A program made the translations under genes and the position numbers. Shown here piece after piece: positions 42,634 through 53,580 of a stretch of DNA of 64,000 nucleotides. The DNA is taken from positions 2,418,001 through 2,482,000 of the forward strand of contig NZ_LT629742.1 in the NCBI RefSeq assembly GCF_900104895.1. Reading direction: 5' to 3'. Numbering within the stretch: the stretch's first letter is position 1; each line of letters opens with the position of its first letter. This DNA comes from Microterricola viridarii. Lineage in GTDB: Bacteria > Actinomycetota > Actinomycetes > Actinomycetales > Microbacteriaceae. The notes beneath the pieces were generated by a model. It made no database searches. It had not been told where the DNA came from and was given only the letters and a program-made list of their open reading frames with translations.

Positions 42634-42683
42634 GCACGCGTGTGCCGGGGCGCACCTGTGATGTGGATCGAGGAGGCAGGGCG

Positions 42684-43679
42684 ATGGCTGCGAATGCTGA
42701 CGAAGCGAGAGAGGCGCGGATGACGCTGGCTGCGCTGTCGGAGCCGGGCGACACCATCACGGGCACGCTGCTCGCCCGGCTTGGCGCGATTGAGACCGTG
42801 CAGCTGATCACGTCCGGCGATCGTCTCCCGAATGGAGTCGATCCGGCGGAGGGTGAGCTGTGGCGGCGAAGGCTTGCCCCACGCCTCAACCCCGGTCAGG
42901 CAGACCGCATTCGTGGCGACATGGAGCGCACCGGCATGCGGTTGCTGACTCCGGAGGACGTTGAGTGGCCGGGCGAGCTGCAACAGCTCGGCGTGGGTGC
43001 GCCGATTGCGCTCTGGCTCCGGGGCGATCCGGGACTGCTATCGGCCGGGCTCCCCGGCAAGGTCACCGTCGTCGGAGCCCGCGCCGCGACGGCGTATGGC
43101 GAGTATGTCTCCACCGAGCTGGCCTCGGCGCTCGCATCCCAGGGGCGCGTGATCCTCTCCGGGGGCGCGTACGGCATCGACGGCTCCGTGCACCGCGCCG
43201 CGACCGCGACCTCCCCCGGTTCAACTATCGCTGTGCTCGCGGGCGGGCTCGACCGGCTCTACCCCACCGGCCATGAACAACTCTTCGAACGCATCGAGCA
43301 GAGCGGCGGCCTGCTTCTCACCGAGCTGCCACCGGGTTCCATCCCGACGCGGTGGCGTTTCCTGCAGCGCAACCGAATTCTCGCGGCGCTCTCCGGCGCA
43401 ACGGTCGTCGTCGAAGCCGGGCATCGCTCCGGATCACTGAACGTCGCCAGCCAAGCGCACGCTCTCGGCCGACCGGTCGGCGCGGTCCCCGGCCCGGTGA
43501 CGAGCGCGGCGAGCTCGGGCTGTCATCGGCTGATCCACGAGGGCATCGCGAGCCTCGTCACCGACGCACAAGACGTCACCGACCTGCTGGACTCAACCGC
43601 CGGGTTCTCCGGCGACCGAACATTTGTGCACGCGCCCAGTCGAAACGCCGCGCGGACCGGCCCCGGTCTGGTGCTCTGA
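42684..43679 (+). CDS. DprA/Smf-like DNA-processing protein in transfer operon
   Basis: A 331-residue protein with a DprA-type Rossmann core: VVGARAATAYGEYVSTELA, then GRVILSGGAYGIDGSVHRA, GGLDRLYPTGH, LLLTELPPGSIPTRWRF and LNVASQAHALGRPVGAVPG. DprA binds single-stranded DNA and loads RecA in natural transformation. As an element-encoded copy it may protect the incoming strand. Start ATG 42684 with GAGGAGGCAGG before it. It is between the VirB4-like and VirD4 genes, on the same strand. Confidence 0.88.
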   Translation: MAANADEAREARMTLAALSEPGDTITGTLLARLGAIETVQLITSGDRLPNGVDPAEGELWRRRLAPRLNPGQADRIRGDMERTGMRLLTPEDVEWPGELQQLGVGAPIALWLRGDPGLLSAGLPGKVTVVGARAATAYGEYVSTELASALASQGRVILSGGAYGIDGSVHRAATATSPGSTIAVLAGGLDRLYPTGHEQLFERIEQSGGLLLTELPPGSIPTRWRFLQRNRILAALSGATVVVEAGHRSGSLNVASQAHALGRPVGAVPGPVTSAASSGCHRLIHEGIASLVTDAQDVTDLLDSTAGFSGDRTFVHAPSRNAARTGPGLVL

Positions 43680-43707
43680 ACACCGCCGAGAGAGTGGCGA
43701 CGCTGCA

Positions 43708-45519
43708 ATGAGCACCACACGAGCCCAAGGCACACTCGGCGACGAGCTCACCAACCTCGGCGTCGGGCTCCTGATCGGTGCCGCAGCCCTCGCCCTGCTG
43801 CTCCGAGCCGCAGGCGCAGTCGCGGCCTGGGCGACGGGCATCGCGCAACCCTCCGGCGGGCCGGCATCCGGGCTCGCGGTGCTCTTCAACCTGGGCAACC
43901 CATCCGCGGCACTGAACGCACCGGACCTCAGCCCATTTGCGTACTGGCTCGCGGTCGCCGTGCTGCTCGGGATAGCGGTGACCGCGACGATCTGGCTGTG
44001 GAGGATGCTGCGCGACTCAGGACGCACCGCCAGGTACGACCCGCATCGCATCCCCGGCATTGCCACCCGCGCCGAAGTCGCCCGCGCCGCTTCACGCTCA
44101 GCCCTCATGAAGCGCGCGGCACACCTACGCCCCTCCCTGACGAAGGCCCGACCAAGCGACGTCGGCTACCGCATCGGCCGAGCACGCGGCACCACGGTGT
44201 GGGCAAGCGTCGAAGACTCGATCCTCGTCATCGGCCCACCACGCTCCGGCAAAGGGGCACACATCGTGATCAACTCCATCCTCGACGCCCCCGGCCCCGT
44301 CGTCACCACCTCCACGCGCCCTGACAACCTCACCGCCACATTGCGGGCTCGGCAACGGCTCGGCCCGGTTGCTGTGTTCGACCCGCAACAGCTCGCTGCG
44401 GGCATCCCGGTGGGGCTGCGCTGGTCGCCGATCCGCGGATGCGAAGACCCGCTCACGGCCATGATCCGGGCGACGGGGCTGGCCGCCGGCACCGGGTTGG
44501 CCGCGGGTGGTGTCGACGGCGGCGGATTCTGGGAGGCGAAGACCCGCACGGCACTCCAATCGTTGCTGCACGCGGCGGCCCTCGACCACAGCTCGCCCGC
44601 TGAGCTCTTCCGCTGGACCCTCGATCCCGCCGCCGCCCACGACGCGGTGTCCATCCTGCTCAGCACCCCGGCCGCCGCCACCGGCTGGGGAGACTCGCTG
44701 CAAGCGATGCTCGAGGCCGACCCGCGCACACGCGACTCCATCTGGCAGGGCGTCTCCCTCGCCTTGGGAGCGTTGGCCGACCCTCGAGTGCTGGATGCCG
44801 TCTCCCCCGACGACGGCGAAGGCTTCGACCCTGAGCGCTTCCTGCGCAGCAACGGCACCCTGTATTTGCTCGCCACCGGCGCCGGCGCGAACAACTCCGC
44901 TGCACTCGTCGCGGCGTTTGTTGAAGACCTCATCGAGACCGCCCGCCGCATCGCCGCGCGCAACACCGGAGCCCGTCTCGACCCGCCCCTGCTGCTGGCA
45001 CTCGACGAGATCGGCAACCTCGCTCCCCTCCCGTCGCTCCCGAACCTCATGGCGGAGGGTGGAGGCACCGGCATCACGACGATTCCCGTTCTGCAATCAC
45101 TCGCGCAGGCGCGCACCAAGTGGAGCGACAACGCGGCCGGCGCCATCTGGGACGCGTCGATCGTCAAGATCGTGCTCGGCGGAGCATCCAACTCGCGAGA
45201 CCTGCACGACCTCTCGACCCTGATCGGCGAGCGCGACGAGTCCACCAACTCGTCGACGATTGGCGACCGCGGTTCCCGCTCTTCACAACGCTCGATCCGC
45301 CGCGTCGCGATCATGCCGCCCGACACGATCCGCACCCTCCCATTCGGCACCGGCCTCATCATGCTGCGCGCGGCTCCGCCCGTCGTTGCCCAGTTCCGCA
45401 TGTGGACGGAACGCAAGGACGCGAAAGTACTGCGAGCGAATCGCACGGAGATCGAGTCGTTCTTGCGTCTGCCGGCTCACCAGGCGCCTCCCGAGCATCC
45501 GATCACCGATGCAGAATGA
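43708..45519 (+). CDS. VirD4/TraG-type coupling protein
   Basis: A 603-residue type IV coupling protein that docks the relaxase-DNA complex to the channel. Two membrane helices lie in the first ~100 residues (~20-40 and ~80-98). Walker A is IGPPRSGKGAHIV (176-183 core) and Walker B is LLLALDEIGNLAPLP, followed by VLQSLAQARTKW and a helix-turn-helix-like all-alpha insertion in the middle. The ATG at 43708 follows the DprA stop by 28 bases. Confidence 0.92.
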   Translation: MSTTRAQGTLGDELTNLGVGLLIGAAALALLLRAAGAVAAWATGIAQPSGGPASGLAVLFNLGNPSAALNAPDLSPFAYWLAVAVLLGIAVTATIWLWRMLRDSGRTARYDPHRIPGIATRAEVARAASRSALMKRAAHLRPSLTKARPSDVGYRIGRARGTTVWASVEDSILVIGPPRSGKGAHIVINSILDAPGPVVTTSTRPDNLTATLRARQRLGPVAVFDPQQLAAGIPVGLRWSPIRGCEDPLTAMIRATGLAAGTGLAAGGVDGGGFWEAKTRTALQSLLHAAALDHSSPAELFRWTLDPAAAHDAVSILLSTPAAATGWGDSLQAMLEADPRTRDSIWQGVSLALGALADPRVLDAVSPDDGEGFDPERFLRSNGTLYLLATGAGANNSAALVAAFVEDLIETARRIAARNTGARLDPPLLLALDEIGNLAPLPSLPNLMAEGGGTGITTIPVLQSLAQARTKWSDNAAGAIWDASIVKIVLGGASNSRDLHDLSTLIGERDESTNSSTIGDRGSRSSQRSIRRVAIMPPDTIRTLPFGTGLIMLRAAPPVVAQFRMWTERKDAKVLRANRTEIESFLRLPAHQAPPEHPITDAE

Positions 45520-46942: not shown

Positions 46943-47413
46943 CTACTTCACTCCGGCGCCCCTGCTTTGTGTGACCTGGCCGACGACGAGAAATTCCCCG
47001 AGAACCGTTGACCCGTCAACCCCGTAGACCGGGATTACGTGGTCCTTCGCCCCTTCGGTCGCCTGCCATTTCAGAGCGTCCTCCGGAGATTTGAACGATG
47101 CCTGAGCCGCTGTCCCATTGACGGCATCAAGCTCAGTCTTCCTGACGAAACCTTCCTTGCCGTTGGTCGCCACTGCTTGAATCAGGTCAGGCTCTGTCTC
47201 AGGTGAGATGGCATCGACTGCGGAACCGTAAGTGAGACCCTGCCGGTTCATTTCATACTCGGGTGCGGGTAGGGGCTTCGATTGCATGCCCTCCGCAGTC
47301 AGCCCTGCAGGGGCGAAGAGCGTGGGAACGTATGCGACTGCTGTTCCCGTGCCAAGGCCGGCGAGCGCGAGAACCGCTACGCCAACTGCGAGTGTGGTGG
47401 TGCGTTTCTTCAT
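46943..47413 (-). CDS. Secreted protein, unrecognised
   Basis: A 156-residue protein with a clear signal peptide (KKRTTTLAVGVAVLALAGLG, cleavage probably after AVA near residue 27). The mature part has no named domain; it has a TPDLIQAV-like helix region (ETEPDLIQAVATNGKEGFV) and a beta-rich tail (VIPVYGVDGSTVLGEFLVVG). AGGAAGGACGGTC precedes the ATG. It is 15 bases downstream of another secreted protein gene and likely co-transcribed with it. Confidence 0.75.
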   Translation of the reverse strand: MKKRTTTLAVGVAVLALAGLGTGTAVAYVPTLFAPAGLTAEGMQSKPLPAPEYEMNRQGLTYGSAVDAISPETEPDLIQAVATNGKEGFVRKTELDAVNGTAAQASFKSPEDALKWQATEGAKDHVIPVYGVDGSTVLGEFLVVGQVTQSRGAGVK

Positions 47414-47428
47414 GATTGACCGTCCTTC

Positions 47429-47920
47429 CTAGGAGTTCTGGAGTCGGGATTGGAAGGTGTAGACCGGATTATAGCCGCTCCCGTTCCAGCCGTACGATAC
47501 GCCGTATGAGTACCAGGATCCCGTTTGCCATCTAGTGCAAGAGTCTCCGTTGGCGTAGGACGCCCCTGAGTTGTAGGTGATGTTGCCCTCGCAGCTCAGG
47601 GAATTGTTGCTAGTGAATAGCCTCCCCTTGGAACCCATGTCCCCGTTCTGAGCCCCCGGTCGTGAGGTCGTTGTCCTTGCCGATGCCCAGTGTCCGGAGG
47701 TGTTGCCCGTTACGGTCGCGTAATTTGTGTAGGTCTTGCCGGAAACTGTGAACGTTCCAGTGTCGCTACTGGCGTCGCCAGCCGATGCCGGCTGGAGGCC
47801 GAAACCAACGAGAAAGGTCATGACAAATGTCCCGACTAGTAGCATCAACCCGCGACGGCGATGCCCCGGGTCGCGCGTTTCGGAAGGCTCGAGATTCTCT
47901 CGAGTTGCGGCTAGATTCAT
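47429..47920 (-). CDS. Secreted small protein, unrecognised
   Basis: A 163-residue protein. An extended N-terminus with Arg-rich stretch (DPGHRRRGLMLLVGTFVMTF) leads into a signal peptide ending at PASA/G (about residue 48). The mature ~115 residues are rich in Ser, Thr, Gly, Tyr and Asn with two cysteines (SLSCEGN, DSCTRW), ending SYGVSYGWNGSGYNPVYTF. It superficially recalls small bacteriocin-like secreted proteins, but I cannot match it to a family. AGAAAGGAACCG precedes ATG 47920. It is divergent from a truncated sigma-factor remnant. Confidence 0.7.
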   Translation of the reverse strand: MNLAATRENLEPSETRDPGHRRRGLMLLVGTFVMTFLVGFGLQPASAGDASSDTGTFTVSGKTYTNYATVTGNTSGHWASARTTTSRPGAQNGDMGSKGRLFTSNNSLSCEGNITYNSGASYANGDSCTRWQTGSWYSYGVSYGWNGSGYNPVYTFQSRLQNS

Positions 47921-48048
47921 GGGCGGTTCCTTTCTCATCGATGTCGGCCCCAGGCGCAGGCTTACTAAGAGATGTCCGGATCGCCGCGAATGGTTCACGT
48001 CTGACCTGATATCCCTCGCGTTCGTAGAATGACCGATGAGGGGTGCAA

Positions 48049-48168
48049 GTGAAGAGCGAACAAAAGTCGGATTCCGCGCTGTGGCTAGAAGCAATCTCGG
48101 GAACCGAGCGCCTTTTCCTAGTGATCTTCGATCGCTACCGAGACCGCACCTTTCGTGCCTCGCCATAG
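48049..48168 (+). pseudogene. Truncated ECF-like sigma factor
   Basis: A 39-codon frame, GTG at 48049, encodes SDSALWLEAISGTERLFLVI and FDRYRDRTFRAS before TAG. This matches the first 37 residues of the intact sigma gene at 49909-50520 (SDAALWLEAVSGTERAFAVI, FDRHRARVFRAA). The rest is missing; a degraded IS701-like transposase sequence starts at the break. It is therefore a duplicated sigma factor cut by an IS. Confidence 0.85.
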
Positions 48169-48870
48169 GGCCCAGCGGATCAAGCGGTGTGGGTTGCGGG
48201 CTCGGGGCCATACGAGCCATGCGATGAGGTGCCTGATGCCAGGAACTGAGAGTTTTGCCAGTTGCCCGTAGCCTGGTTCTTGGCCCCCAAGCTTGAGCAG
48301 CTGGTGCCAAGGCAGGCGGGGCGAACATGGAGAGAACGATGTGCCGATACCAGCCGGTGTTCTGGCGGACTTGGTAGTGATCGAGTCCGGTCTCGCCTTT
48401 GGAGGTTTGACAGGTTTCCTCAATGGCCCGCGGGCTCTGGCAGCCCTCGCGGGCTCAATGAGGGTGACGTTCTACGGAGTGTGGCAGATGAAGTGGGCCA
48501 AGTCTGATGGATCTTTCACCGACCGGCAGCCCAGTAGCCAGTGCTCGCCGGTTCCGGTCGAGCGGTTGATGCGGATCCGGGCTCAGGCGTAGAGCTTCTC
48601 GCCCTTGATGGCAGCACCAGCGGTGCGGGTGCGCCAGGCGCATACGTCTAGAGAAGCGAAGAGCTGATGGGGTCGGCTACCGGAGCCTCGTTCTCTAGGG
48701 CTCGGAATCATGGTGCTGGTGGCGCGATGATCTCCGTCGAGCTCCCACCGCTGCTCGAGCTGAGCGCTAGCCAGTTTCACGAGTTGAGGTCGACGTGATC
48801 TGGACCGCGTACGTCTCATCGGACATCTCATGTCAAAGGGCTTACGAGGAGCTCTCTGTTCCAGGAGGAA
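48160..48870 (-). pseudogene. Degraded IS701-like transposase
   Basis: The minus strand, read through frame changes, encodes pieces of an IS701-type DDE transposase: INRSTGTGEHWLLGCRS, DLAHFICHTP, then TGWYRHIVLSMFA and finally KLSVPGIRHLIAWLVWPRAR with NPHRLIRWALWR. At least two frameshifts and an early stop separate these, so it cannot give an active protein. It appears to have cut the neighbouring sigma factor. Confidence 0.75.
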
Positions 48871-48873
48871 GTT

Positions 48874-49407
48874 GTGAAGAATCGAATCGTTCAATGTGTG
48901 GGGGCGGTCATCGGGGCTGTGGCACTCAGCTTGGGCTCGGCTACGACGGCGGTGGCCGTCGAGAGTTCACCCGCCGTAGAGCATTGTGCTGTTGAGGCAG
49001 CTCAGCTCGGCTCAACGGAGGAGTTGGCCGAGCCGGTGTGCTTCGGCACGACCGATGGGCTGAATGCGTTTCTGGAGAAGGTGGGTGCAGGCAACGCTGC
49101 ACGAGGGGTTACCGCGAACGTGCTGCTCGGGACCGTCTACAAAGATGCCAATGGAACAGGTGCAAGCCTGGCGTTCTACGGCTCGAGCGGTTGCGCGGAG
49201 GTGACGTTCGGATTTTCGACGCTGACGGCGGGATGGGACAACAGCATTAGCTCAGCCCGAGGCTCGAATGGGTGTTGGCTCACCCTATACACGGCCACAA
49301 ACTACGGTGGAAGCAAACTGAATTGCACCCCGTACTGCTCTTCAATCGGAGGCTGGAACGACAACGTGAAGTCTCTCGTTTTCCGGCCGGCGGGCACGTT
49401 TGGGTAG
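48874..49407 (+). CDS. Secreted beta/gamma-crystallin-like (peptidase inhibitor I36-type) protein
   Basis: A 177-residue exported protein. The signal peptide (VGAVIGAVALSLGSATTAVA) ends near residue 28. The mature C-terminal half looks like a Greek-key beta/gamma-crystallin or I36-type inhibitor domain: GASLAFYGSSGCAEVTFGF, then WDNSISSARGSNGCWLTLY, NYGGSKLNCTPYC and GWNDNVKSLVF, with the usual WxxxxSS repeat. AGGAGGAAGTT precedes the GTG. It ends two bases before the convergent anti-sigma-like gene. Antimicrobial, inhibitor or stress roles are all possible. Confidence 0.82.
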   Translation: MKNRIVQCVGAVIGAVALSLGSATTAVAVESSPAVEHCAVEAAQLGSTEELAEPVCFGTTDGLNAFLEKVGAGNAARGVTANVLLGTVYKDANGTGASLAFYGSSGCAEVTFGFSTLTAGWDNSISSARGSNGCWLTLYTATNYGGSKLNCTPYCSSIGGWNDNVKSLVFRPAGTFG

Positions 49408-49409
49408 AT

Positions 49410-49922
49410 CTACTCGCGGTCGAGTGGCGCCATTCCGAGCGAGAGACAAATCGATTCTGAAGAACTCGGAACGACCGCTGCGCTTCCGTCTCGGAGCACG
49501 CAAATTTGCAGCGGTGGCGCGACTCCCGGCGCATGTGCGGGAGCTGTGGGGTCTGAGTCATCACTGAGCGCGCCCTCTTCCCACATCTGCGTGCACAGCA
49601 CTATTGCATCTGCTACGTGACCTGATCCGCCACCGTTCTCGAGGGTTGCAGACGACCCGGGGTAGCTTCCGTCAGGGTTGACATCGGTGGAGCTGAGGCA
49701 GTGAACGAGGTTCATGTTGGACATATGGGTGGCATTTAGAACGATCGCCGCTCCCGTGGCGAAACCACCAACGAGGAGCAAACCCGCGAAGCTTCCTGCG
49801 AGGATTCGCCGCCGTGTTCGCCGTGCTACTTCGTGAGGCTCGCCGCGAAGGCGCTGCATTAACAGCTCACGGATCGCATCAGTTCGTTCCGGAGTCATGG
49901 CGGGTACGTCATAGGTGTTCAC
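49410..49922 (-). CDS. Membrane-anchored protein, probable anti-sigma partner
   Basis: A 170-residue protein with a cytoplasmic N-terminus (~45 residues, TPERTDAIRELLMQRLRG), one membrane helix (ILAGSFAGLLLVGGFATGAA) and an outside domain with several Cys residues. Its start overlaps the sigma factor gene by 14 bases. That arrangement and topology are typical of anti-sigma factors, although the ZAS zinc motif HxxxCxxC is not present, so the assignment is from context. Confidence 0.6.
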   Translation of the reverse strand: MNTYDVPAMTPERTDAIRELLMQRLRGEPHEVARRTRRRILAGSFAGLLLVGGFATGAAIVLNATHMSNMNLVHCLSSTDVNPDGSYPGSSATLENGGGSGHVADAIVLCTQMWEEGALSDDSDPTAPAHAPGVAPPLQICVLRDGSAAVVPSSSESICLSLGMAPLDRE

Positions 49923-50520
49923 GGTGCGCGCCTCCTCTCGTTATCTCGCCGTCTGCTACTGATGTGTCCACATCCGTCAATTCGGTACGGAGTTGGCCGC
50001 GTGCTCGATGAAGTCGCGATTTTACGGTGCCCGCGGGAATGCCCAGAACAGCGGCAGCGGCAGCGATTGGCAGCTCTTCGACCAGACATAGATCGACCAC
50101 TGCACGATCGGCTGGGGCAAGTTTCCGGAGCGCCTGAGCGAGGCGGTTCCCGCGCATATGAAGATCTATCCGTGCATCGATCTGGGGTGCCGCGTCTTCG
50201 GCTGAGGGGCTGGGCGGAAGATTGCCGATGAGGCGCCTGTAGCGGCGCTGAGCTCGCGTCAGATTCCGTGTGACGTTGGTTGTCACAGTCAGGAGCCACG
50301 GAAGAAGCGAGCCGTCAACGATCCGCACTTTCTTGCGGAGTCGCCACGCCTCGAGGAAGACGATTGCGACGGCGTCCTCAGCATCAGCGACGTTACCGAC
50401 CCGCCGATACGCCGCACGGAATACTCTGGCTCGATGCCGGTCGAAGATGACAGCGAAGGCACGCTCGGTGCCAGAAACCGCCTCTAACCACAGGGCCGCA
50501 TCTGAGTCTCGTTCCTCCAC
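49909..50520 (-). CDS. ECF-type RNA polymerase sigma factor
   Basis: A 203-residue sigma-70 family protein. Region 2 is AVIFDRHRARVFRAAYRRVG with DAEDAVAIVFLEAWR, and region 4 is APADRAVVDLCLVEELPIAA with AAVLGIPAGTVKSRLHRARG. GTG at 50520 has GGGAGCTG before it. It is co-translated with the membrane protein that follows, the usual sigma/anti-sigma design. A truncated relative lies at 48049-48168 next to a secreted protein gene, so this sigma may control the small secreted proteins around it. Confidence 0.88.
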   Translation of the reverse strand: MEERDSDAALWLEAVSGTERAFAVIFDRHRARVFRAAYRRVGNVADAEDAVAIVFLEAWRLRKKVRIVDGSLLPWLLTVTTNVTRNLTRAQRRYRRLIGNLPPSPSAEDAAPQIDARIDLHMRGNRLAQALRKLAPADRAVVDLCLVEELPIAAAAAVLGIPAGTVKSRLHRARGQLRTELTDVDTSVADGEITRGGAHREHL

Positions 50521-50694
50521 CAGCTCCCACCCCCCGTTCGCGCATCCAGCTTACGGGTTGAGTCCGAATCGAAGGGGAAGCAATCAACCTTTCATCCACG
50601 CGCCGAGCATCCCCTAGCAACGGCCTATTGGAGACCAATATCCCTCAAGCCTCGAAAGGCAATGGGAGATGGATTTGAGTAGAAGAATAGCCAT
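50521..50694. promoter_or_regulatory. Divergent promoter region of sigma gene
   Basis: Region between the sigma gene and a broken secreted-protein gene; it should hold the promoter for the sigma/anti-sigma pair. The sequence is less GC-rich than neighbouring coding DNA, with no operator symmetry that I could pick out. Confidence 0.35.
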
Positions 50695-51042
50695 ATGGGG
50701 GTGGTGGCGGTCGGATCGATCGGTGCCCTCCTGATCTTGGGGAGTGCGTTGCCGGTGTCGGCCAGCTCCTCTGGTAAGGATTCGAGACGGAGCTAGGAGT
50801 CCGTCGCCTCGTCGATCAGCGCATCGAAGCAAGCCACCGCGGAAAGCTTCGCCGCGAAGTTCGTCTTCGAGGACCCCGTCCACGAAAACGCTCTCGGTTT
50901 ATCAGCGACGGAGTTCGCGGCGTACAACGATCAGCTCGAAATCGACTTTGACCCCGGCGAGTGGACACCTCACAGCAGAGAATGCTCACTCTGGCAAGGA
51001 CACATCGGCCGCTCACTCCCGAGCACAAGGACGAGGCCGTGA
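50695..51042 (+). pseudogene. Broken secreted-protein gene (in-frame amber stop)
   Basis: ATG at 50695 begins a signal peptide (GVVAVGSIGALLILGSALPV, then SASSSG). TAG at 50794-50796 stops it after 33 codons, but the same frame continues with protein-like sequence (SFAAKFVFEDPVHENALGLS, then EFAAYNDQLEIDFDPGEW) until about 50975, where IS3 sequence takes over. So it was a secreted protein gene that acquired a nonsense codon and lost its 3' end to an IS. Confidence 0.75.
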
Positions 51043-51578
51043 AGCTGGTCATCACGACCGGCAAGGCAGTCGCCACCGTTGCACGTGAGCTCGGCATCAA
51101 CGAGGCCACTTGGGTCGTTTGGTGATCGCGTTCAAGGCCCGCAACGAGACCGGGCAGGCGGACGTGACAGAGTCCAGGCGGGCCGAGCTGTTAAGGCTGC
51201 GGATAGAGAATGCAGACCTGAAACTGGATCGGACGCTCTTGAAAAAGCGTTCACCTTCTTCGCCCAGGAAGCCACGCGACGGCGGTGAGGATCCAGGACG
51301 TGCACCCGAAGAACTACGGCGTCTACGGCGCCCCGAAGGTGCACGCGCAGCTGCGCCGCGACGGCCATCCGGTCGCGCGGAGCACGGTGGAACGGCTGAT
51401 GCGCCGCGTGGGGCTGCTGGGCGTGTCCCGGCGGAAGGGGCCGCCGCCGACAGTGTCGGGGCCGTTCTCGGACCGGGCGGGCGACCTCGTCGACAGGCCC
51501 TGCACCGCGCCGGCGCGGACGGCCTGTGGGGGGCCAGGCAAAACCATACGAACCCGAAGGCGCCTCGAGTTTGACTAG
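50982..51578 (+). pseudogene. Remnant of an IS3-family transposase
   Basis: An OrfA start (ARTHRPLTPEHKDEAVKLVI, then ATVARELGINEAT) changes frame near 51108-51112 to GRLVIAFKARNETGQADVTE. It continues as an OrfB start (IQDVHPKNYGVYGAPKVHAQ, RSTVERLMRRVGLLG) that ends about 51578 without the DDE catalytic core. Several frameshifts and the 3' truncation make it non-functional. It differs from the intact IS3 element at 14571-15865. Confidence 0.85.
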
Positions 51579-51908: not shown

Positions 51909-53099
51909 CTACAGCGAGTCCGGCCCCAAACGTTGCAGCACCTCCGCCGGCGCAGACTTCACCGTGCGATCCGGCTCGGCGTAGTGCTCCTTCGTCGTCG
52001 AGGTCGAGGTGTGCCCGAGCATGTCAGCCGCGGCCTGGATGCCGAGCTCGTTGGCAAGCAGCGTCGCGCCCGTTCGGCGGAACGCGTGCGGGGTGATCTC
52101 CATCTCCTCGAGGCCCGCGAGCTTGAGGATCTCGCGGAAGTTGCGCCTGACGTTGTTTGGGGCGAGCGGAGTGCCATTCCGCGAGATGAACAACAGATGC
52201 TCTGCATCCTCCCCGGCTATCAATGCCAGACGATGTCGAATCACCTCAGCAGCGAACGCCGGCACGGCCAAGACGCGATTCGACTCGTGCGTTTTCGGAT
52301 GCTCCTGCCGGTACACGCCCTTGCCCGTGCCGACGATCACCGTGCCGTTGATGTACACGCGGGGCGGGTCGGCTGCCATGTCGACGTCACACTTGCGGAG
52401 CGCTAGCGTCTCACCGATGCGCGTCGCCGTGCCGAGCATCACCTCAATGAGATCCCGCACCTGACCGTCGGGCCGCGGCCCCAGCGTGCCCGGGGCAGAG
52501 CGCCAGTCCCGCGCGGCGATGCGGATCGCGGAGATCTGCTCCATGGTGAGGGCTTTGGGTGTGTGCGGCGGCTTCTTCATCCGCGTGGTTTCCTTGACCG
52601 GGTTGCGCGGAATGATCTCGCGCCGCACGGCGAAGCCCAGCACCATGCCGAGGATGGTTTTGGAGTGCTTCGCACGCGGGTAGGACTTTGCCCGCTGCAC
52701 CTTGAGAAAACGCTCAATACGGCTGACGGTCACCTCACGCACCGTGAAGTGCTCAAAGGTCGGCAACACGAGGGTGCGCAGTTCTCGCTCATAGATTTCT
52801 TTCGTGCTGTCCGCACGGTCCATGTCGAGCATGAGGTCTTCCAGCCAGGCTTCAGCGAGCACAGTGAACGGTGAGCCCGCATCCAGCGAGGCTGTCGTGT
52901 CGCCGACGTGCATACGCTGCGCCAGATCGGCCTTGAGCGCGGTGATCGCACCGTTGCGGCTCGACGCCGTGCTCGTGACCTGCCGGTTCTGCCCGTCCCA
53001 GTCGCGAAAACGGGTCCAAGACCGATAGCGATCGGGCCCGAGGCGCGTCGTCTGGATGGCGCCGAAAGTGCCGACAGGGAGGCGGGGCCGACCGGCCAT
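51909..53099 (-). CDS. Tyrosine-family site-specific integrase
   Basis: A 396-residue phage-type integrase. The N-terminal ~60 residues form the arm-type DNA-binding region (VGTFGAIQTTRLGPDRYRSW), then a SAM-like core-binding domain. The catalytic domain has Arg in MLGTATRIGETLALR, H-x-x-R in HAFRRTGATLLANEL, and the nucleophile Tyr in STSTTKEHYAEP. It integrates and excises the element at the tRNA gene to its right. The ATG overlaps the excisionase stop by one base (TGATG), so the two are coupled. Confidence 0.93.
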   Translation of the reverse strand: MAGRPRLPVGTFGAIQTTRLGPDRYRSWTRFRDWDGQNRQVTSTASSRNGAITALKADLAQRMHVGDTTASLDAGSPFTVLAEAWLEDLMLDMDRADSTKEIYERELRTLVLPTFEHFTVREVTVSRIERFLKVQRAKSYPRAKHSKTILGMVLGFAVRREIIPRNPVKETTRMKKPPHTPKALTMEQISAIRIAARDWRSAPGTLGPRPDGQVRDLIEVMLGTATRIGETLALRKCDVDMAADPPRVYINGTVIVGTGKGVYRQEHPKTHESNRVLAVPAFAAEVIRHRLALIAGEDAEHLLFISRNGTPLAPNNVRRNFREILKLAGLEEMEITPHAFRRTGATLLANELGIQAAADMLGHTSTSTTKEHYAEPDRTVKSAPAEVLQRLGPDSL

Positions 53100-53335
53100 C
53101 AGCGCACCTTCTGACCGAGCGCCAGAGTCGCGGCTGGTTCGTGGAGCCCGTCCAACCAACAGACGACATCGGAGATGCGATAGCGAATCTCTCGCCCCAC
53201 CCGCATGCCGGAGGGCCCGCGGCCATCGGCGCGCAGATCATAGATAGCCTGCACGTGCACGCCGAGGTACTCTGCGAGCTCACTCGTGGTAAGAACCGGC
53301 TCGAGGCCGAGCCCGGCGAGGCGATCGGTGTTCAT
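53099..53335 (-). CDS. Excisionase/AlpA-like helix-turn-helix protein
   Basis: A 78-residue DNA-binding protein with the MerR-like HTH_17 pattern: LTTSELAEYLGVHVQAIYDL, then GPSGMRVGREIRYRISDVVCWL. Such proteins bend attachment-site DNA and favour excision. The start ATG at 53335 is chosen since the homologous part begins there; the frame extends to 53455 without features. It sits between the tRNA attachment site and the integrase, which it precedes in the same operon. Confidence 0.88.
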   Translation of the reverse strand: MNTDRLAGLGLEPVLTTSELAEYLGVHVQAIYDLRADGRGPSGMRVGREIRYRISDVVCWLDGLHEPAATLALGQKVR

Positions 53336-53506
53336 AACACGTAGGTGTTCGAGGCCAACCCAGCTCAATCGAACCGGGCCGAATACGGGGTTGGCGTGGC
53401 GCCGCAGAGTCGCGTTTTCTTCGAATAAGTGTTGAATAAACGTTGAATGTATCAAGTTTCTGCCTTTTCACTAAGACAAGAAACCCTGATCAGTTCGTTA
53501 TTACAG

Positions 53507-53580
53507 TAGGGCGGACGGGACTTGAACCCGTGACCGGCGGATTATGAGTCCGATGCTCTAACCAGCTGAGCTACCGCCCC
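53507..53580 (-). tRNA. tRNA-Met (anticodon CAU); probable ICE attachment site
   Basis: A 74-nt cloverleaf on the minus strand. The acceptor stem is GGGGCGG with CCGCCCT, discriminator A, D-stem GCTC, anticodon loop ACTCATAATC (CAU) and T-arm CGGGTTCAAGTCCCG. CCA is not encoded. CAU could also mean tRNA-Ile2, which needs a modified C; I judge elongator Met more likely. Its 3' end faces the excisionase/integrase genes, the typical place of a tRNA-directed ICE attachment site. Confidence 0.88.

What the first reader, a model, noticed from the sequence alone, without database searches (positions are those of the whole stretch)
46943..50520. Sigma/anti-sigma pair amid small secreted proteins
An ECF-like sigma factor with a membrane-anchored partner is surrounded by three secreted-protein genes, and a truncated relative of the sigma gene lies directly beside one of them. 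The repeated pairing of sigma genes with secreted-protein genes suggests a dedicated module controlling secreted effectors (bacteriocin or stress proteins) on the ICE.
Basis: partly seen in the sequence, partly recalled or inferred. Interest (0 to 1): 0.65.

Follow-up and report, generated by a model that had tools for sequence, protein, structure and literature searches.

The report
Mobile sigma switch for secreted proteins
A conjugative element in an actinobacterium carries a sigma factor and membrane partner whose predicted DNA target sequence sits in front of neighbouring genes for small exported proteins, and the same genes and target recur in many related bacteria and plasmids, so this looks like a portable, so far undescribed switch for exported proteins.

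Summary
The window has an ECF sigma gene (49909-50520 -), an overlapping single-span membrane partner (49410-49922 -), three secreted-protein genes and a 38-codon sigma remnant beside one of them (48049-48162 +). The proposed regulatory link is strongly supported by comparison, not by experiment. A promoter-like motif, GAACC-N14-GGACAT, lies 51 bp upstream of secB (perfect) and 47 bp upstream of the I36/crystallin gene (one mismatch). Every relative in one sigma clade has the motif at its module; sigma loci outside it do not. Background for <=1 mismatch is 3 per 841,318 positions. The crystallin gene adjoins sigma/anti-sigma in 17 of 21 loci. On Arthrobacter-type plasmids the anti-sigma's outer domain is homologous to exported SecA; one plasmid carries sigma, anti-sigma, secB and secA in a row. 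Not shown: that sigma binds the motif, that the partner inhibits it, what the exported proteins do. The bacteriocin idea has no sequence support. This copy is partly decayed, and the host chromosome encodes a second sigma of the same clade with the same motif, so control may be shared. Verdict: real, a new variant of a known kind.

The parts
49909..50520 (-). ECF sigma factor gene (203 aa)
   Evidence: Sigma70_r2/r4; tree places it in a clade with L027, L042, L187, L188, L028
49410..49922 (-). putative anti-sigma factor: ~33-residue basic N-terminus, one TM span, outer domain with four Cys (three invariant, one nearly so)
   Evidence: alignment A1 of 12 homologues; overlaps sigma; AF2 model of middling confidence
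49964..49988 (-). promoter-like site inside the 3' end of sigma, before the anti-sigma gene (GTACC-N14-GGACAC, 2 mismatches)
   Evidence: the equivalent site is a perfect match in L027 7637-7661 and L042 10515-10539, 45-48 bp before anti-sigma
48874..49407 (+). secreted I36/beta-gamma-crystallin protein (177 aa), contains DNSISS, a Ca-binding-type sequence
   Evidence: PF03995 above cut-off; crystallin relatives in PDB
48802..48826 (+). motif GGACC-N14-GGACAT, 47 bp upstream of the I36 gene, 1 mismatch
47429..47920 (-). secB, secreted protein of an unnamed family (163 aa)
   Evidence: alignment A3; no Pfam/NCBIfam family
46943..47413 (-). secA, secreted protein of an unnamed family (156 aa), 15 bp after secB
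   Evidence: alignment A2; pair with secB recurs in L024, L025, L112, L113, L114, L175 and, with SecB interrupted by one stop, L174
47972..47996 (-). motif GAACC-N14-GGACAT, perfect, 51 bp upstream of secB
48049..48162 (+). 5' remnant of a second sigma gene of the same clade
   Evidence: 25/35 identical to the intact sigma and 26/35 to the L027 sigma
48310..48543 (+). IS701-type transposase remnant between the sigma remnant and I36
50688..50965 (+). broken gene divergent from sigma: signal peptide, then an in-frame stop, then cut off by a transposase remnant
   Evidence: (translation); its upstream sequence at about 50583-50615 resembles a decayed motif (inspection only)
51909..53159 (-). tyrosine integrase of the element
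   Evidence: Phage_integrase E 1.6e-21
53506..53540 (.). 35-bp att core, 3' end of tRNA-Met

Best explanation
A cargo module on a tRNA-Met-integrated conjugative element. The ECF sigma is held at the membrane by its partner. When the partner's Cys-rich outer domain senses an unknown extracellular cue, sigma is released and directs RNA polymerase to GAACC-N14-GGACAT promoters in front of the I36/crystallin gene and the secB-secA operon, and probably in front of its own anti-sigma gene as feedback. The secB promoter was most likely served originally by the now truncated second sigma and is now recognised by the intact one. Shown: gene order, motif, positions, recurrence. Inferred: binding, inhibition, cue, roles of the exported proteins.
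For: In the whole 3.84-Mb genome GRACC-N14-GGACATC occurs only twice, at these two genes (control 0). The same motif lies 37-47 bp before I36 in six loci, 45-48 bp before anti-sigma in two, and 8-9 bp before sigma in four. A perfect or near (<=2 mismatch) motif is found at the module in all 14 loci of one sigma clade on the tree, plus L253, and at none of the 10 modules outside the clade that were scanned. Background for <=1 mismatch is 3 per 841,318 positions. I36 is next to sigma/anti-sigma in 17 of 21 loci, reciprocally 13 of 15. pAD51 has sigma, anti-sigma, secB, secA in order with a perfect motif in front.
Against: No expression or binding data. The partner lacks a zinc anti-sigma motif and its inhibitory role rests on context. 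Most secB-secA pairs elsewhere (L024, L025, L112, L113, L174, L175) have neither this sigma nor the motif nearby. The copy is partly decayed: second sigma truncated, divergent target broken, anti-sigma site with 2 mismatches, no clear own promoter for sigma. A chromosomal sigma of the same clade has the same motif.
Confidence: 0.78

Rival explanations
1. The secreted genes are really controlled by the host's chromosomal sigma (G000:C1 about 2289275-2289853), whose own promoter carries the same motif; the element's sigma is a relic or a modulator.
For: GAACC-N14-GGACAT lies 8 bp before that sigma; it falls in the same clade; this element copy has broken parts.
Against: In other genomes I36 and motif travel with the sigma/anti-sigma pair that is closest to the window's. 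The intact sigma and partner are open and conserved.
Confidence: 0.25
2. The secreted proteins are bacteriocins or other antagonists, and sigma/anti-sigma is a competition sensor.
For: Small secreted proteins on mobile elements; SecB-SecA pairing and fusion (L116) would fit an active protein plus a partner or immunity protein; a membrane-active-looking secreted protein sits beside the module in L042.
Against: No family match to any bacteriocin in Pfam or NCBIfam for SecB or SecA; I36 is a crystallin-type protein; no dedicated exporter or immunity gene seen.
Confidence: 0.15
3. Neighbourhood by chance: cargo genes accumulated at the end of an element by IS activity.
For: IS701 and IS3 remnants flank the genes; secB-secA usually occurs without the sigma.
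Against: Motif at similar distance upstream of both transcription units and recurrent linkage across genera.
Confidence: 0.03

Closest known systems
Membrane-tethered ECF sigma / anti-sigma pairs of actinobacteria
   Same: ECF sigma with r2 and r4, overlapping single-span partner, target genes nearby with a shared promoter-like motif
   Different: Partner has no zinc anti-sigma motif, a very short cytoplasmic part and an outer domain of no known family; targets are dedicated secreted proteins on mobile elements
SigI-RsgI systems of Clostridium thermocellum (PMC4711584, PMC12203970; abstracts only)
   Same: Anti-sigma outer domain related to exported products: on pAD51, p2MP and pASPHE301 the outer domain of the anti-sigma is homologous to exported SecA
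   Different: Different sigma family and domains; in the window itself the anti-sigma outer domain is not detectably related to I36 or SecA
NCBIfam CU044_5270 proteins (NF038083)
   Same: N-terminal parts of the window partner, of the p2MP anti-sigma and of the chromosomal anti-sigma all give weak matches to the same N-terminal stretch
   Different: All far below the family cut-off; outer domains differ
Peptidase inhibitor I36 (SMPI) / beta-gamma-crystallin, Myxococcus protein S
   Same: PF03995 match; crystallin relatives by sequence; Ca-binding-type DNSISS
   Different: Extra N-terminal Cys-containing region; linked to a sigma factor; inhibitor activity untested

Membership tests
ECF sigma factor | regions 2 and 4 present, region 3 absent | tested here: met
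   r2 26-93, r4_2 126-177 of 203 aa, no region 3 matched
ECF sigma factor | assignment to a numbered ECF group | not testable with these tools
   ECF group models not held; classification paper not in the library
Class I (zinc) anti-sigma factor | HxxxCxxC anti-sigma domain in the cytoplasmic part | tested here: not met
   no Cys or such motif in the N-terminal 60 residues
Anti-sigma factor (functional) | binds and inhibits the cognate sigma | not testable with these tools
   context only: the gene follows or overlaps sigma in all loci
Peptidase inhibitor family I36 | score above Pfam gathering cut-off | tested here: met
   31.8 against 21.1 bits
Peptidase inhibitor family I36 | inhibits a protease | not testable with these tools
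   needs an assay
Known bacteriocin families | match to a bacteriocin profile | tested here: not met
   none for SecB or SecA in Pfam or NCBIfam
SigI-RsgI type logic | anti-sigma outer domain homologous to the exported product | tested here: inconclusive
   met in L114 (SecA domain in anti-sigma and exported SecA in one row), SecA-type anti-sigma also in L115 and L253; not met for the window anti-sigma against I36 or SecA
Integrative conjugative element | integrase, tRNA att repeats, conjugation coupling protein | tested here: met
Integrative conjugative element | relaxase | not tested
   left part of the element lies outside the window and was not annotated

The most novel reading that the evidence does not exclude
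A mobile family of self-monitoring export switches: each sigma/anti-sigma pair travels with its own exported protein, and the anti-sigma's outer domain is derived from or tuned to that exported protein (SecA domain in the plasmid forms, four-Cys domain with crystallin in this form), so that the pair senses the fate of its own product outside the cell.
Probability: 0.2. Interest if true: 0.8.

Novelty: new variant of a known kind. Interest (0 to 1): 0.6.

Why it matters
A sigma clade with a recognisable promoter gives a way to find unknown exported cargo of actinobacterial conjugative elements simply by scanning for the motif, and the plasmid forms in which the anti-sigma sensor is homologous to the exported protein make a specific sensing hypothesis directly testable. 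It also shows how an orphaned promoter on an element could be captured by a second sigma on the element or by a host sigma of the same clade.

Tried and rejected
SecB structure prediction from a single sequence: pLDDT 35, unusable, not searched. Anti-sigma model from three sequences: pLDDT 62; Foldseek against PDB gave no match with E below 3.9. Profile comparison of anti-sigma with I36 and with SecA: probability 9% and 1%, no relation claimed. SecB in IMG/VR and in phages: nothing. SecB profile against PDB: only chance-level hits. Lactococcin-972-like reading of SecB, suggested by composition only: no Pfam match, dropped. The sigma scan of GTDB contigs gave mostly generic ECF factors beyond L041 and L042. 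Literature: no paper found linking ECF sigma with I36 or naming this anti-sigma type; the library lacks most subscription journals. Motif hits with 13-base spacing elsewhere in genomes mostly look like chance.

Full report
WHAT IS THERE. On the minus strand an ECF sigma gene (49909-50520) overlaps by 14 bp a gene for a 170-residue membrane protein (49410-49922). Convergent to it is an I36/beta-gamma-crystallin gene (48874-49407, PF03995 above its cut-off). Further left lie secB (47429-47920) and secA (46943-47413), a likely operon on the minus strand. Between secB and I36 lies a sigma remnant that starts with GTG at 48049 and breaks off near 48162; it matches the first 35 residues of the intact sigma at 25 positions, and an IS701-type remnant follows.

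THE ELEMENT. The genes lie between conjugation genes (T4SS coupling protein 43624-45519) and an integrase/excisionase pair next to tRNA-Met. The 35-bp 3' end of that tRNA recurs three more times 84, 93 and 98 kb to the left, without a tRNA there. This fits an integrated element of about 84 kb, possibly in a tandem array. Three other species of the same genus lack secB and the anti-sigma. The family is taken to be Microbacteriaceae because G155 and the named record of L041 (Microbacteriaceae bacterium 3FA27C10) have the same contig.

RECURRENCE. The anti-sigma protein alone, searched in 200 genomes of the family, retrieved 17 loci in 15 other genomes. With profiles for all five proteins, 21 distinct sigma/anti-sigma loci were examined, and an I36 gene is adjacent in 17: convergent to anti-sigma in one group, divergent from or beside sigma in others. 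One of the four exceptions ends at a contig edge just after anti-sigma. Conversely, an I36 profile found 15 places in 12 of 200 genomes; 13 lie near such a pair (12 within about 0.7 kb, one at 3.9 kb), and the other two are at contig ends. That profile was made from linked members, so the reciprocal figure leans towards linkage; the search does not have that bias.

THE MOTIF. Comparing upstream regions showed GAACC-N14-GGACAT. In the window it lies upstream of secB (perfect) and of I36 (one mismatch), and for GRACC-N14-GGACATC the whole genome has exactly these two sites. Twenty perfect sites (13-15 spacing) were found in 444 kb of examined loci, nearly all at modules. With 14-base spacing and up to one mismatch, the rate outside modules was 3 in 841,318 positions, or 0.0002 per 60-base start region. 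Distances are regular: 37-47 bp before I36 in six loci, 51 bp before secB, 45-48 bp before anti-sigma in two loci where the site lies inside the end of sigma, and 8-9 bp before sigma in L114, L189, L030 and the host chromosome. On a tree of the sigma proteins all loci with the motif form one clade, in which every member has it with at most two mismatches; the other sigma clade, also linked to I36, lacks it and shows a different shared upstream sequence (inspection). The motif was found by eye with the window included, so the figures are not a blind test; but the consensus is the same without the window. In a 64-kb scan allowing two mismatches the number of hits is what chance gives; the strength lies in the zero- and one-mismatch sites and their positions.

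THE PLASMID FORMS. SecA and SecB belong to families absent from Pfam and NCBIfam. They occur as a pair in several genomes and plasmids, including Paenibacillus, and fused in one protein on a Streptomyces plasmid. On Arthrobacter pAD51 the order is sigma, anti-sigma, secB, secA, with a perfect motif before sigma; the anti-sigma's outer part is a SecA domain. On p2MP and pASPHE301 the sigma is likewise followed by an anti-sigma with a SecA domain. So SecA-type domains serve both as exported proteins and as sensors in this sigma clade. Most other SecA genes in the class have no such sigma near.

HOW IT PROBABLY WORKS. Sigma is kept at the membrane by its partner; a signal at the Cys-rich outer domain frees it; it transcribes I36, secB-secA and anti-sigma. 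The sigma remnant with secB divergent to it suggests that secB-secA had its own sigma, of the same clade and hence the same promoter, and that the surviving sigma has taken over. Against full function: the gene divergent from the intact sigma is broken, the anti-sigma site has two mismatches, and sigma has no clear own promoter. A chromosomal sigma of the same clade could also read these promoters.

WHAT IS NOT KNOWN. Signal, inhibition, transcription, and roles of the exported proteins. I36 relatives include calcium-binding crystallins, and DNSISS in the window protein fits a calcium site (own knowledge of the motif). Nothing points to a bacteriocin beyond size and setting.

NOVELTY. ECF sigma/anti-sigma control of neighbouring genes is known; the clade, its mobile form with dedicated exported proteins, the two unnamed families and the shared sensor/export domain were not found described in the papers searched, which exclude most subscription journals.

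Noticed in passing
L222 3743-3767 and 3776-5097 (G000:C1 about 2289242-2290596): The host chromosome has a second sigma/anti-sigma pair of the same clade with a perfect motif 8 bp before the sigma start; cross-talk with the element is possible.
   Followed up: partly
L116 4473-5285: SecB and SecA domains fused in one open reading frame on a Streptomyces plasmid, annotated there as an ATP-dependent Lon protease.
   Followed up: partly
L029, L031, L034 between sigma and I36: The divergent I36 group lacks GAACC-N14-GGACAT but shares other upstream blocks (about TATATATGTG and CGTTACCC), perhaps the promoter of the other sigma clade.
   Followed up: no
window 42642-43679: A DprA-like DNA processing protein (PF02481, E 1.1e-63) is encoded among the conjugation genes of the element.
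   Followed up: no
L042 11857-12459: A secreted protein with a long hydrophobic Gly/Ala-rich stretch starts 87-126 bp after a one-mismatch motif, divergent from I36; bacteriocin-like in look only.
   Followed up: no
L027 6264-7001: A perfect motif precedes a divergent secreted-protein gene next to sigma; the broken window gene at 50688-50965 may be a distant remnant of the same kind of target.
   Followed up: partly
G000:C1:2373682, 2378217, 2387120, 2471509: Four copies of the tRNA-Met 3' end in one orientation suggest a tandem array of integrated elements.
   Followed up: partly
window 50961-51574: Remnant of an IS3-type transposase that cuts the gene divergent from sigma (family named from the look of the reading frames only).
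   Followed up: no
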